Shown here piece after piece: positions 18,993 through 23,906 of a DNA stretch of 25,409 nucleotides. A model generated the notes under the pieces. That model was not told where the DNA came from. It saw nothing but the letters and a program-made list of their open reading frames with translations, and ran no database searches. Source of the DNA: a virus; the IMG/VR virus record IMGVR_UViG_3300009413_000074, positions 1 through 25,409 of that record; one strand, 5' to 3'. How positions within the stretch are numbered: the stretch's first letter is position 1; the number at the start of each line of letters is the position of its first letter. A program made the position numbers and the translations under genes.

Positions 18993-20498
18993 TTACTCCT
19001 TTGTAGTAACTAACTCGTAAGGCATTAAGTGCTCAGATGGTTCTCCTTCACTAGTAACCTTGTGTCCATTTGTAGATTGACGCAAGCTCTCTACATCTTG
19101 TTCTGATGGAGTATTTCTAGTTTCTACATCTTGTAAAAGTTCAATTCCAGAAGATTGGTCAATATGGTCTAACAAAGTATGCAGCACCGACTTTAATCTA
19201 TCTTTATCCTTTTGTTCTAACACCAACATGTTTTCTGCACGAGAGGCTTGATTAATGAAACCACCAAGATTTCTAAGTGATTGTGTTAATCTCTGTAAGT
19301 CCCGCATGGAAATCTTTGGCATGAATATTTCAATAGTTCTGTCTTTGCCTTCTATAGTCTTGTTTCCGTGTATCTCTGCTTGGTCTAAGACAAAATCGAA
19401 AATCTCTAATAGAATGTCACGCCACACATACTGTCTATCTGCAAGTGTCTTAAATACCCACTCATTAACATCGCCACCTGCTTGCCTTCCACCACCTGGG
19501 TCACCAAATGCTTGCGAGGATAATCCACTTCCACCCCAAATCATGTGCATGAAAGTAGTGGCATCTTGAGTAGCATCATCAGCTTGTAAGTCAGGAGACA
19601 TAGGTTTGCGTTGCTCTTTTTCGTTATGAACGTAAAACCTTCCAGAACGCTGTTTTTGCTCTTGAATAATTAAGTCAGCCATCTTTTTATCTAGTTCAGC
19701 TTTACCAGCACCTTGTACTTCAATATCCCAAAGGAATTGAGACATATAACCTTGTCTTGTAGCACGATTAAAGACAAACTGGTCATATATATCAATCCAG
19801 TCAGCAATTGGATAAAGGTCAGATAAGCCACGTAAAGCATCATGAGACTTATTAATTCCAAAAAAGAACATATCTCCCCAATACTTCATGAAATTGGGGT
19901 TAGAAGTTTCTCCATCTGGTAGAAATATCTCTGTATTTACTTTAATAGCCTGAAACACTTGTTTAGGTACAGACTTTCCACTAACATCTTTCCCTTCTTT
20001 AGTAATGATTTGTTCAACTTCAAATACATTTCTAATATTAGGATGAAGTTCGTGAATAATACTTGGATGAGAAGCTCCTAATTGAACTGCACCATTAACA
20101 TCGTTAACATAGGCAGGATAAAGTGCTTCTCCATATAAACTAAGTGATATAACCCTTTCACGTAAATATTTTCTCCAGTTATTCCTTCTATCCTTCCAAA
20201 ATCTCTGTAATACCCTAGCTACTTCAGGGTCTATAGCCTTTACGATTATACCTTCCCCTACAACGAAGGCCTTCATTACCTCAATTATTCTGTGAGCTAT
20301 AGCATTTCTGCGATATAGATATACAGCTATAGCTTGCATTCTATCCATTTGGAATGTAGGAAGATCTCTACCTCCTACTGTTAATGGAGTCCAGCCTATA
20401 TTCTCTACATCATCAATGTTACCTTGACCAGATGTAGAATAAGGAAGGTTCTCTCTTAAGTTAAATACCTTAGCTACAGATTCTCTAAAAAAATTCAT
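18993..20498 (-). CDS. Portal protein (501 aa)
   Basis: The portal forms the dodecameric DNA-entry ring of the head. The length is typical, and the position directly after the terminase nuclease gene is the standard order. Recognisable portal features are the N-terminal helical region with MDRMQAIAVYLYRRNAIAHR (about 50-69), a wing region with QLGASHPSIIHELHPN, the stem-helix region starting SHDALRGLSDLYPIADWIDI (about 217-236), and the long C-terminal crown helices after GGGRQAGGDVNEW. The start overlaps the upstream stop (TAATG) with no strong ribosome binding site of its own. No fused protease or MuF domain is present. Confidence 0.9.
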   Translation of the reverse strand: MNFFRESVAKVFNLRENLPYSTSGQGNIDDVENIGWTPLTVGGRDLPTFQMDRMQAIAVYLYRRNAIAHRIIEVMKAFVVGEGIIVKAIDPEVARVLQRFWKDRRNNWRKYLRERVISLSLYGEALYPAYVNDVNGAVQLGASHPSIIHELHPNIRNVFEVEQIITKEGKDVSGKSVPKQVFQAIKVNTEIFLPDGETSNPNFMKYWGDMFFFGINKSHDALRGLSDLYPIADWIDIYDQFVFNRATRQGYMSQFLWDIEVQGAGKAELDKKMADLIIQEQKQRSGRFYVHNEKEQRKPMSPDLQADDATQDATTFMHMIWGGSGLSSQAFGDPGGGRQAGGDVNEWVFKTLADRQYVWRDILLEIFDFVLDQAEIHGNKTIEGKDRTIEIFMPKISMRDLQRLTQSLRNLGGFINQASRAENMLVLEQKDKDRLKSVLHTLLDHIDQSSGIELLQDVETRNTPSEQDVESLRQSTNGHKVTSEGEPSEHLMPYELVTTKE

Positions 20499-21415
20499 TA
20501 TAAGATCATCCTTCTATGCATTCCCATACCAACACCATCTCTACGAATAATACCTACACCATTATCACTTTCATTGAAATAGTTATCTAGAGCTTCTTGT
20601 TCCTCTTTGGTTAATCCTCTATCTTCATAATTACGTGCAACAGACTCTACAAATTGTTGAATTTCTTCATTAGAGCCAGGTTCAGAGACACTTGCAGCAG
20701 ATACAGTAGAAATAATAGAAGTTAACACTCCAGCAACTCCATCTAGCGTATCATCATGTGGAGCATCTGGAAAAGAGACCCATTCTTCAACAAATATGTT
20801 AAATTCTTCAATTGGCTGCCATTTTCCCAAATCATCCTGATATCCAGGCAATAAAGCACGTCCAGCGTTAAAATGTGCTCCAGCAGACTCAAATTTGATC
20901 TTTTTATCAGAACGATGCCAATTTTTGTCTGTTTCTTGGATATTGAACATTAATTGTTCTTTTACATGGTTATAGAAGTATAATTGAGGCCCACCAACCT
21001 CAATAACTATAACTTCTGGTGCCCAAACAGCATATACATCCTTAATTAACTGAACTTGTAATTCTAGAGGTGCTTTTGTACGAATTAAGTTCAAAAGGTA
21101 TATCTTATTCTCAAAAAGACCTGCTGTAGCCATACAAAAGAAGTCAGCACTATTCTTTAGAGAAGCAGCAGGGTCAATAAAGGATACTATTTTCTCGAAA
21201 GTTAATGGGCGATTATTCCAATCATACCAACTAAGCCATGAACGCTTCAAGTAGTTACCAGTGGTATCCATAGGTGAGGACTGATATTGTGAGGAAAAGG
21301 ATACAGGCCCCAAGTCAGTTTGCCAATCTTTAAGAATCTTGACAGGAAATTGCTCAGGCCAATAGCTCTCCCCGTCATCTTGAATTGCTTTATATACTAT
21401 TACTTTGCCTGGCAT
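20498..21415 (-). CDS. Large terminase, nuclease half (305 aa)
   Basis: This is the C-terminal nuclease part of a packaging terminase, encoded as its own gene. It opens with the sequence that usually follows the ATPase domain in one-piece terminases (YKAIQDDGESYWPEQFP, then FSSQYQSSP). The RNase H-like active site is visible as D81 in VSFIDPAAS, E139 in VIVIEVGG and D221/D222 in APHDDTLDG. No Walker motifs are present. The start ATG lies 12 bases after the stop of a Cys-rich gene, has no Shine-Dalgarno site, and TAG blocks any upstream extension. The partner ATPase gene is 1,037 bases upstream. A separately translated subunit that associates with the ATPase is the simplest reading. Confidence 0.9.
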   Translation of the reverse strand: MPGKVIVYKAIQDDGESYWPEQFPVKILKDWQTDLGPVSFSSQYQSSPMDTTGNYLKRSWLSWYDWNNRPLTFEKIVSFIDPAASLKNSADFFCMATAGLFENKIYLLNLIRTKAPLELQVQLIKDVYAVWAPEVIVIEVGGPQLYFYNHVKEQLMFNIQETDKNWHRSDKKIKFESAGAHFNAGRALLPGYQDDLGKWQPIEEFNIFVEEWVSFPDAPHDDTLDGVAGVLTSIISTVSAASVSEPGSNEEIQQFVESVARNYEDRGLTKEEQEALDNYFNESDNGVGIIRRDGVGMGMHRRMIL

Positions 21416-21427
21416 TATAATATAAAG

Positions 21428-21724
21428 CTAAAATATAAACTCATGTTGCTCTGTAGTCTTTTTATCTGCATCTCTCTTTCTTCGTTTCTCTCTTCTTTTT
21501 AATTGTGTCTCTGACCATAACCTTTTAAGAGATTTGTCCCAACAACTTATACATAGATTATCTCCAAGCTCTCCATAAATCCTACACAAACGTCCACTTG
21601 GAGACTTACCTTGACATACCCCAATAGTGTATTCAGGGATATGTGCCTCAACCATCGAGTCAGGCCTTGTAGTATTAGTCATCACTACATGACTTTTGCG
21701 CTGTCTTTTAGACTCTTCTACCAT
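21428..21724 (-). CDS. Cys-rich basic small protein between terminase halves (98 aa)
   Basis: Four cysteines, C37-x9-C47-x10-C58-x2-C61, lie in a compact core (GVCQGKSPSGRLCR, NLCISCWDKS), followed by a strongly basic stretch at about 76-92 (KRREKRRKRDADKK), which suggests a zinc-binding nucleic-acid-binding protein. The ATG overlaps the end of the preceding gene in another frame, without a ribosome binding site. The family is unknown. Its place directly before the terminase nuclease half hints at a packaging role. Confidence 0.7.
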   Translation of the reverse strand: MVEESKRQRKSHVVMTNTTRPDSMVEAHIPEYTIGVCQGKSPSGRLCRIYGELGDNLCISCWDKSLKRLWSETQLKRREKRRKRDADKKTTEQHEFIF

Positions 21725-21987
21725 TTACGGATTTTAGGCCTCTTGTCGATATTTTCAACCTTGTCATCTCTTAACCAATAACGCATATCATCTGGAATTA
21801 TACCTAAAACCCAAGCTTTTCCACAGTTACCACACATATATGCTTTATTTTCACTAATTTCAGACTTTAATAGCTCATTTTGGCCTTGGCAACCATTACA
21901 TTGCCATAAAAGGCTTTCACCATCGGGTATTGGAGTAATTTTAATCTTTGGAAGCTGAGGTTCCTCAAAAGGATTAATTACAGTCAT
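21718..21987 (-). CDS. Zinc-ribbon small protein between terminase halves (89 aa)
   Basis: A clear zinc ribbon, C30-x2-C33 in WQCNGCQGQ and C52-x2-C55 in YMCGNCGKAW, is flanked by a Pro-rich N terminus and a charged C terminus. The ATG at 21987 is chosen because it overlaps the upstream stop as ATGA, the usual coupled arrangement; an ATG six codons earlier has no ribosome binding site. Such ribbons bind nucleic acid or act as protein-protein modules. No more specific family is recognised. Confidence 0.75.
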   Translation of the reverse strand: MTVINPFEEPQLPKIKITPIPDGESLLWQCNGCQGQNELLKSEISENKAYMCGNCGKAWVLGIIPDDMRYWLRDDKVENIDKRPKIRKW

Positions 21988-22439
21988 TTCTTGACTACCA
22001 TCCATGTAGATTCAGCTATAGGAGTCTGATGATAAGGATATTTCTCTAATTTAGGGAATGTTGAAGAGAAAACAGGCCAATCCTTAACTAAGAGATCGTC
22101 ATTGCAACCAAAAGTCTTTACTAATATAGAACCTGACACTTCTCTAGCAGCTAAAATAATAGGCTCATAGAGACTAGGACTTATATAGTCTGCTATCCAT
22201 GTTCTATGAAGGCCAGTTACTGAAGATACACATAAAAGTCTAACATAACCTATTAAGCTAGTATGATAGTCTTTTCCTTTAAGTAAGAAATATATTACAT
22301 CATCTGATTTACTAAAGACATCCCATGTTTGTTCTGCTTTAGGAAAGTTAGCTCTACCTTCTGAAATACAACGATTATCAACAACAGAAGCTAATTTAAT
22401 CTGATCCCAAGTTGTGGCTTTCTCTACTGAATAATTCAT
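21984..22439 (-). CDS. Unidentified protein, possibly GNAT-like (151 aa)
   Basis: The ATG at 22439 is preferred, with AGGTG five bases upstream; a GTG six bases earlier is also possible. The gene starts just after the terminase ATPase stop. The order of helices and strands, with a central IGYVRLLCVSS strand, a WIADYISPSLYEPIILAARE strand-helix and a C-terminal strand, is loosely like an acetyltransferase (GNAT) fold, but I do not see the pyrophosphate-binding Q/RxxGxG/A loop, so catalysis is doubtful. It is the largest of the three genes between the terminase halves. Function is unknown. Confidence 0.7.
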   Translation of the reverse strand: MNYSVEKATTWDQIKLASVVDNRCISEGRANFPKAEQTWDVFSKSDDVIYFLLKGKDYHTSLIGYVRLLCVSSVTGLHRTWIADYISPSLYEPIILAAREVSGSILVKTFGCNDDLLVKDWPVFSSTFPKLEKYPYHQTPIAESTWMVVKK

Positions 22440-22452
22440 TACCACACCTACA

Positions 22453-23313
22453 TTATAGTTTTTCTAACTCTTGCTCTAATTCTCTATAACGTTTAACTTG
22501 GTCCAAAACTTCTGCTACCATATTCCCAGTTAACTCTGCGCCAGTATCCAGCATCTTCGCAATAACTGATATATAGATATCTTTCATTGACCATCTAGAG
22601 CCTACAACAACAATTTGAGTTTTGGCATGACGAGAACCCTTTAATTCTTCGTTGAACCAGTAATTGATGTCGAGAATTTGATTATCAGTTTTGACATCAC
22701 TTCTGTCAATAATATCGTCAAGAATGATAATATCAGCACGACGCCCAACAACAGCACCGCCAACACCAACAGAAAAGATAGAACAATCCTTTGCATCAAC
22801 ACGATAACCCAGTTTATTAAATTCTGGTCTACCTTTAACAATCTTCTCTGTTTCATTCCATTTCACTGTTTCAGAGTTAATAGATGTAGAGATAACTGGA
22901 ATCATATTACCAAATAAGAGTTGATACTTTTCCAGTTTCATTATGTTTTCTATACTTCTACTAAACGAAGATGCTAACGTAGCAGTATGAGAACCAATGA
23001 TAACTCTAATACCTCTATCTTGTCCTAGTCTGTAAGAAGGATAACGTGTTGAAGCAATAGATGACTTACCAGAGTTTCGAGGAACAATACCTACTACATC
23101 CTCAAATGTATCTAAAGCTTCGCATAACTCTATATGATGAAGAGCATTCTTCTCTTCAAATACATATTCATTGAAAGTTTCTAATTTATTCCTAGAACCT
23201 ATTACCTCTCTGTCAACAGTTACCTTTTCTGTAACAACTTTAAAAAGGTCTGTTAGTTGATTTTGGTCAACATTAAGGATATCAGGATTTTGAAGTAAAT
23301 TAGGATTTAGCAT
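22453..23313 (-). CDS. Large terminase, ATPase half (286 aa)
   Basis: This is the motor part of the packaging terminase as a separate gene. Walker A is PRNSGKSS at residues 78-85, Walker B with catalytic carboxylates is ADIIILDD at 193-200, and the coupling motif is VVVGSRW at 235-241. After this the sequence runs only about 45 residues (MKDIYISV then a charged helix ending ELEQELEKL) and stops, whereas normal large terminases continue into the nuclease domain. There is no nuclease active site. The ATG overlaps the terminase small subunit stop. The charged C-terminal helix could mediate docking to the nuclease half (inference). Confidence 0.92.
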   Translation of the reverse strand: MLNPNLLQNPDILNVDQNQLTDLFKVVTEKVTVDREVIGSRNKLETFNEYVFEEKNALHHIELCEALDTFEDVVGIVPRNSGKSSIASTRYPSYRLGQDRGIRVIIGSHTATLASSFSRSIENIMKLEKYQLLFGNMIPVISTSINSETVKWNETEKIVKGRPEFNKLGYRVDAKDCSIFSVGVGGAVVGRRADIIILDDIIDRSDVKTDNQILDINYWFNEELKGSRHAKTQIVVVGSRWSMKDIYISVIAKMLDTGAELTGNMVAEVLDQVKRYRELEQELEKL

Positions 23314-23906
23314 TATTGAGTAGCCACAGGGAGAGAAATACGATTTAAGCCATGATTAATAGCTTCTCTAGTATCTGCATCAATTACGTTAGTATCTATT
23401 ACCTCTCCAATAGTCTGCATTATTGCAGCAACAACCTTAACATCAATAACATACTTTCTACCAACTTCAATTTCATGCTTGGTTTGTATTAACTTAGCAA
23501 TTGTCTTAGTTAGAGTAGTGATATTACGAGTTAATTCTCCAGCATCAAAGCTAATACCCATTTCTTGAAGTACTGAAGTATCTATATTAGCAAAAAGTTC
23601 TATGTGTTTATCAAATAACTCTAGGTAAGCTCTATTTAGAGCAATCTCTCTATCTAGTGAGTATATATTCCTATCTAAAAGATAAAACTCCATTCTGTCT
23701 TGTAGAGCTGGTATTTGATACATTCTTACAGGAGAACTATTAGACTTATCTTCGTGCCACTTACAGCGACCTTCGTTAGGATGGTCTGTACCTTGACCAC
23801 TTGTACTGGTACAAATATCCCCGCCTACCTTTGTGGCACCACAAATTCCATATCTTTTATCTTTTTTAACAATTTCCTTTTTATCTTTATCGTAGTTATC
23901 TATCAT
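23313..23906 (-). CDS. Terminase small subunit candidate (197 aa)
   Basis: Residues 20-52 carry a Cys/His block, C22-GATKVGGDI-C32 ... GTDHPNEGRCKWH with H42, C48 and H51, a pattern seen at the N terminus of some terminase small subunits (CxxxTKxGxxC ... GTxHxGxGxCKxH), probably a zinc-stabilised DNA-binding element. The rest is helical, with a long central coiled-coil-like region (about 68-160) as expected for the oligomerisation core. It lies immediately upstream of the ATPase gene, the normal order, and its ATG overlaps the 45-residue zinc-ribbon gene's stop as ATGA. In the family this protein recognises the packaging site. The assignment rests on context plus this motif. Confidence 0.75.
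   Translation of the reverse strand: MIDNYDKDKKEIVKKDKRYGICGATKVGGDICTSTSGQGTDHPNEGRCKWHEDKSNSSPVRMYQIPALQDRMEFYLLDRNIYSLDREIALNRAYLELFDKHIELFANIDTSVLQEMGISFDAGELTRNITTLTKTIAKLIQTKHEIEVGRKYVIDVKVVAAIMQTIGEVIDTNVIDADTREAINHGLNRISLPVATQ

What the first reader, a model, noticed from the sequence alone, without database searches (positions are those of the whole stretch)
20498..23313. Large terminase split into separate ATPase and nuclease genes with three genes between them
The ATPase gene (Walker A, Walker B, GSRW motif) ends soon after the motor domain, and the nuclease gene begins with the sequence that normally follows it and carries its own D81/E139/D221-D222 active site. The 1,037 bases between are almost fully coding, with overlapping genes on the same strand, leaving no room for a group I or II intron core, and no intein-like ends are present. 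So this looks like a stable two-subunit terminase in place of a spliced gene. A separable motor and nuclease would be mechanistically interesting.
Basis: partly seen in the sequence, partly recalled or inferred. Interest (0 to 1): 0.75.

Follow-up and report, generated by a model that had tools for sequence, protein, structure and literature searches.

The report
DNA-packaging motor split into two genes
In a small group of uncultured phages the protein that pumps DNA into the virus head, nearly always a single chain, is made as two separate proteins, cut inside the motor itself, with two small zinc-protein genes always sitting between the two gene halves.

Summary
On the minus strand, 23313-22453 encodes a TerL ATPase core and 21415-20498 the remainder of TerL. 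The two match adjacent columns of a one-piece TerL profile (267-464, then 469-722). The split is not an assembly error or a decaying gene. An independent assembly is 99.99% identical, and two further lineages (about 80% and 52-62% amino-acid identity) have the same break. Both halves are under purifying selection (dN/dS 0.12-0.13). In the relatives the interval is fully coding, no Rfam intron is found, and a 58-kb relative shows no second TerL of the two families tested. All 35 complete relatives carrying the same motif are one-piece.

Two corrections. First, only two of the three intervening genes are conserved; both are zinc-binding-like and were found only in split-TerL contigs. Second, the break is not at the ATPase/nuclease hinge. 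It lies inside the motor, just after the P-loop core, so the "nuclease" gene also carries the lid subdomain and the hinge. The likely product is an obligate two-chain motor subunit, not a separable motor and nuclease. Assembly of the chains, and any role of the zinc proteins, is inferred and untested. PHROGs already holds half-length TerL families, so this is a new variant of a known kind.

The parts
22453..23313 (-). TerL-N: P-loop (ASCE) ATPase core, 286 aa; Walker A K83, P-loop Arg R79, Walker B D199/D200, GSRW 238-241; ends in a 33-residue helical tail absent from one-piece TerLs
   Evidence: phrog_38 columns 267-464; model aligns to T4 gp17 residues 100-312 at Z 17; dN/dS 0.13; tail conserved
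20498..21415 (-). TerL-C: lid subdomain (about residues 5-49), hinge and RNase H-like nuclease (D81, E139, D221/D222), 305 aa
   Evidence: phrog_38 columns 469-722; nuclease fold aligns to T4 gp17 359-561 (Z 14.4) and G20c/P74-26 nuclease from about 254-257 (Z 16-17), leaving the first ~48 residues for the lid; dN/dS 0.12
21718..22005 (-). z95: small zinc-ribbon-like protein, CxxC...CxxC, conserved between the two halves in every split contig
   Evidence: four invariant Cys down to 27% identity; found in the six split contigs only; dN/dS 0.13 against L003
21428..21724 (-). z98: second small Cys-rich protein (C..C...CxxCWD), conserved between the two halves in every split contig
   Evidence: alignment of four lineage members, 23-45% identity; one copy in all seven records tested, always in this place
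21984..22445 (-). 153-codon ORF of unknown function inserted between TerL-N and z95 in this phage only; not part of the conserved block
   Evidence: absent from L003, L004 and L007; only hit is the near-identical contig of the same phage; no match in named phages
23313..23906 (-). 197-aa protein directly upstream in the same operon, conserved in all three lineages; small-terminase candidate by position
   Evidence: 77% identical in L003, 195-aa homologue in L007; only a sub-threshold HGGxSTG-domain match
18993..20498 (-). Portal protein, starts at the TerL-C stop codon
   Evidence: phrog_10963, E 1.6e-29

Best explanation
This is a genuine, old fission of the terminase large-subunit gene. Chain 1 is the P-loop core (the engine). 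Chain 2 is lid + hinge + RNase H-like nuclease (transmission, hinge and wheel/cutter). Shown here: two intact, selected, co-directional genes with a conserved break point and one origin. Inferred: the chains are co-translated from one coupled operon and bind each other through the core-lid face that normally closes over ATP, helped by the new C-terminal helix on chain 1. Five or so such heterodimers then form the packaging ring on the portal, chain 2 transmitting the lid movement to the nuclease domain as in one-piece TerL. Also inferred, more weakly: the two small zinc proteins act with the terminase, for example as a linker or adaptor between chains or to DNA, TerS or portal.
For: Adjacent profile columns and nothing missing between the halves. 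Same break in three lineages, including contigs from other samples, and in an independent 99.99% identical assembly. Split clade monophyletic in both half-trees (99/100 and 100/99). dN/dS 0.12-0.13 for both halves against 0.08 for portal, with the tail conserved. Gene borders overlap or abut: L003 has 4, 7 and 11-base overlaps and no non-coding base between the halves. No intron model hit. A 58-kb relative has only the two halves by phrog_38 and no phrog_2 TerL. Core/lid border: ATPase model ends at T4 312, Sf6 172, P74-26 204-209, D6E 198 in the best core rows, and the nuclease fold starts at T4 359, Sf6 210, P74-26 257; the segment between is the lid and lies at the start of chain 2, where YKAIQDDG...EYQ is shared with one-piece TerLs. 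In D6E the lid precedes linker 230-241 (PMC5727402). In T4, loss of the hinge leaves ATPase and nuclease active but abolishes translocation (PMC9958956), which fits a viable break falling upstream of it.
Against: No RNA, protein or binding data. The lid part of the chain-2 model has only moderate confidence (pLDDT 57-84), and two D6E rows let the chain-1 tail overlay part of the lid, so the exact core/lid border is a model. Conservation of the zinc genes shows linkage, not participation. The two half-trees place the clade beside different one-piece TerLs, with weak support in the nuclease tree, so fission of one ancestral gene is favoured but not proved over assembly from two sources.
Confidence: 0.82

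Rival explanations
1. The halves are exons of one gene joined by a self-splicing intron, with z95, z98 and the 153-codon gene as intronic ORFs, as in phages whose terL is cut by group I introns.
For: Group I introns splitting terL into 2-3 pieces with splicing seen in RNA reads are documented in Jug phages (PMC12363816).
Against: No Rfam hit at gathering thresholds in window, L003 or L007, and only chance hits with a permissive scan of the interval. In L003 and L007 every base between the halves is coding, with overlapping or abutting frames. Both halves have their own start, stop and extra sequence; the chain-1 tail is selected. The intervening genes are not homing endonucleases, and the arrangement is fixed across three lineages.
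Confidence: 0.05
2. The packaging enzyme is a four-part complex in which z95 and z98 are required subunits that hold the engine chain to the lid-nuclease chain.
For: z98 lies between the halves in all seven split records and z95 in all six found by the scan plus the window; both are translationally coupled to the halves and keep their cysteines at 23-29% identity.
Against: They evolve faster than the halves (dN/dS 0.43-0.62 against L007, near saturation of dS). Gene order in phage head modules is often conserved without physical contact. No structure or homologue of known function.
Confidence: 0.3
3. Assembly error, sequencing frameshift or a decaying, non-functional terL.
For: Parabacteroides phage phiPDS1 was reported with TerL in two CDS, its authors naming assembly or codon-table causes (PMC10773633); its close relative has one intact ORF of the same total length.
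Against: Here 540-1037 bases with conserved genes separate the halves, in several independent contigs and lineages; both halves keep all catalytic residues and dN/dS near 0.12.
Confidence: 0.01
4. The two genes are paralogous or scavenged pieces from different TerLs, the real terminase being a full-length gene outside the contigs.
For: The window and most relatives are fragments. Half-trees place the clade beside different one-piece TerLs, weakly supported in the nuclease tree.
Against: No phrog_38 TerL other than the two halves and no phrog_2 TerL in the 58-kb relative. The halves sit directly before portal and after the TerS candidate, the normal terL place, and are under strong selection.
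Confidence: 0.06

Closest known systems
One-piece TerL (phrog_38; T4 gp17, phage D6E, P74-26/G20c, Sf6, T7/PhiV-1 large terminases)
   Same: Same P-loop ATPase core, same lid/linker sequence, same RNase H-like nuclease with three acidic positions, same place before portal
   Different: There one chain; here two chains with the break between core and lid, an extra helical tail on the core, and two zinc-protein genes between
Intron-split terL of Jug phages (PMC12363816)
   Same: terL read from separated ORFs
   Different: Those are joined by group I introns, shown by RNA reads; no intron is detectable here and the gap is made of conserved, coupled genes
Parabacteroides phage phiPDS1 two-CDS TerL (PMC10773633)
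   Same: Annotated as two TerL CDS
   Different: Short gap, and an intact relative ORF of the same total length, which suggests a frameshift, stop or sequence error rather than fission
PHROG phrog_4758 (243 columns) and phrog_5573 (250 columns), half-length TerL families
   Same: The two halves match these nearly end to end (E 2.4e-26 and 2.3e-23), so separate TerL half-genes are already in databases
   Different: Their members could not be identified with the tools; whether they are true fissions or intron-split genes is unknown
Microcystis phage Mae-JY22
   Same: Only named phage with a detectable portal relative (29%); also the best match for the capsid/protease protein (27%)
   Different: Has a one-piece TerL of another family (phrog_2)

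Membership tests
Terminase large subunit (TerL) | ASCE P-loop ATPase with Walker A, Walker B and coupling motif | tested here: met
   fold Z 17 to T4 gp17, Z 19.6 to PhiV-1 TerL
Terminase large subunit (TerL) | RNase H-like nuclease with conserved acidic residues | tested here: met
   D81, E139, D221/D222 invariant; fold Z 14-17 to TerL nucleases, above the RuvC rows at 10-11
Terminase large subunit (TerL) | Both domains on one polypeptide | tested here: not met
   two separate ORFs in all split contigs; so it works like a TerL but is a two-chain form
Group I or II intron-interrupted terL | Ribozyme core between the exons | tested here: not met
   no Rfam match at gathering thresholds in window, L003, L007; permissive scan only chance hits
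Group I or II intron-interrupted terL | Spliced transcript | not testable with these tools
   no RNA data
Intein-split TerL (trans-splicing) | Intein N and C splice domains at the break | tested here: not met
   no Pfam match of any kind for either half at E up to 1; PHROG matches are TerL apart from one weak unknown-function family; the tail is a short conserved helix
Functional two-chain packaging motor | Chains associate and package DNA | not testable with these tools
   needs purified proteins
z95/z98 as zinc-binding proteins | Conserved cysteine ligands | tested here: met
   invariant Cys pairs; metal binding itself untested

The most novel reading that the evidence does not exclude
A lineage of phages runs a multi-chain DNA-packaging motor in which the ATP-hydrolysing engine is one protein and the lid-hinge-nuclease is another, the ATP site being closed in trans, with two dedicated zinc proteins as obligate subunits that couple or regulate engagement of the engine with the nuclease chain.
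Probability: 0.25. Interest if true: 0.8.

Novelty: new variant of a known kind. Interest (0 to 1): 0.62.

Why it matters
How the ATPase stroke is passed to DNA through lid, hinge and nuclease is debated (models summarised in PMC5727402 and PMC9958956), and in T4 the ATPase and nuclease domains without the hinge cannot translocate. A natural terminase cut between engine and lid would let the two parts be mixed, mutated and titrated independently, and shows which covalent link evolution can dispense with. It also warns that annotation and TerL-based taxonomy can count such phages as having two 'terminases' or a broken one.

Tried and rejected
Sequence search of solved structures with either half gave no usable hit, so folds were compared instead. 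Genome scans for bacterial or archaeal relatives found none, so host is unknown. Regions of named phages chosen from the halves' hits were read: all have a one-piece TerL except phiPDS1, which looks like a frameshift or stop. Members of the half-length PHROG families could not be traced. The 153-codon gene has no match in PHROGs, Pfam, NCBIfam, PADLOC or named phages. Literature searches for split terL returned only intron and frameshift cases.

Full report
Observation. All genes concerned lie on the minus strand of a 25.4-kb viral contig. The gene at 23313-22453 matches columns 267-464 of the one-piece TerL family phrog_38, and the gene at 21415-20498 matches columns 469-722. In one-piece relatives fetched from IMG/VR, a profile of the split ATPase ends 3-9 residues before a profile of the split nuclease begins in the clearest cases. 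The two genes are therefore the two parts of one TerL with nothing lost. Catalytic residues are intact in both.

Is it real? A second assembly covers 8.8 kb at 99.99% identity. Two contigs that are about 92% identical to each other, L003 and L004, carry the same two genes at about 80-82% amino-acid identity. In them the ATPase stop overlaps the start of the 95-codon gene and the nuclease start overlaps the end of the 98-codon gene. A third lineage, three near-identical contigs (99.4-99.9%), has the same arrangement at 62% (ATPase) and 52-53% (nuclease) identity. Both halves show dN/dS of 0.12-0.13 against L003, close to portal at 0.08. The 33 ATPase residues beyond the break, which one-piece TerLs lack, are also selected. 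Both half-trees make the split clade one group (99/100 and 100/99).

How unusual? A scan of IMG/VR for the DNA encoding YKAIQDDG, the motif at the break, gave 39 contigs. Thirty-five have an open frame of more than 200 codons upstream (one-piece), three are this clade, and one is truncated at the motif. The TerL regions read in named phages are one-piece, apart from phiPDS1 (see below). However, PHROGs contains an ATPase-only and a nuclease-only TerL family that the two halves match nearly end to end, so half-length TerL genes are already in databases; I could not find out which phages they come from.

Where is the break? The ATPase model (mean pLDDT 81) aligns to T4 gp17 residues 100-312 and ends there; the nuclease fold in the second model (pLDDT 74) starts at T4 359. 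The same gap appears against Sf6 (172 / 210) and P74-26 (204-209 / 257). The piece between is the lid, or transmission, subdomain, and it is encoded at the start of the nuclease gene, where its sequence is shared with one-piece relatives. That this stretch is the lid in T4 and Sf6 is established knowledge of these structures, and PMC5727402 places the lid just before the linker in D6E. Model residue numbers of the nuclease are one less than protein numbers. Thus the break falls between engine and lid, upstream of the hinge. In T4, without the hinge the isolated ATPase and nuclease domains keep their activities but lose translocation (PMC9958956), which is consistent with a viable break falling upstream of the hinge rather than in it. 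Some D6E rows extend the ATPase model into the lid through its new tail, so the border is accurate to perhaps ten residues.

The intervening genes. The 95-codon and 98-codon genes keep paired cysteines at 23-29% identity. z95-like sequences were found only in the six split contigs of IMG/VR (the pattern-based scan is not exhaustive), and z98 occurs once in each of the seven split records tested. The 153-codon gene is confined to this phage and is best seen as a recent insertion. The coupled order 197-aa gene, TerL-N, z95, z98, TerL-C, portal is the conserved unit.

Alternatives. An intron is disfavoured by absence of any Rfam match at gathering thresholds, by only chance hits in a permissive scan of the interval, and by the lack of non-coding sequence between the halves in two lineages. 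phiPDS1 (PMC10773633) differs: its intact relative has an ORF of the same total length, pointing to a frameshift, stop or sequence error. Jug phages (PMC12363816) have proven group I introns. A second TerL was not found in the 58-kb relative with two TerL families, but no closed genome is at hand.

Mechanism. Shown: two conserved, selected genes, one break, one origin. Inferred: the products bind through the core-lid interface, forming a two-chain motor subunit; the lid-hinge-nuclease chain transmits force as in one-piece TerL. Speculative: the zinc proteins are terminase subunits. No experiment supports the inferred steps yet.

Noticed in passing
window 24492-24031 (-): 153-aa RuvC-like protein with a TnpB/Cas12f-type zinc-ribbon C-terminus (PF07282, E 1.8e-12) but no N-terminal guide-binding part; its C-terminal end is 65% identical in L003. 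A resolvase-like gene also lies just upstream of TerS-TerL in Erythrobacter phage vB_EliS-L02, so it may be a packaging-associated junction nuclease.
   Followed up: partly
window 24040-23903 (-): 45-aa zinc-ribbon ORF directly before the TerS candidate: a third small Cys-rich protein in the same operon.
   Followed up: no
window 8038-7139, 9008-8025 and 18002-17121 (-): Three similar proteins resembling glycosyltransferases (DND/DTD-type motifs) scattered in the structural module; no PHROG match for the two scanned.
   Followed up: no
window 16502-13902 (-): 866-aa protein matching head maturation protease and major head protein families together (phrog_29592, phrog_4523, phrog_15531): a protease-capsid fusion, closest to Microcystis phage Mae-JY22.
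   Followed up: partly
L132 2721-4283 (Microcystis phage Mae-JY22): This phage shares portal and capsid families with the window but has a TerL of another family, so terL appears to have been exchanged relative to the head genes.
   Followed up: partly
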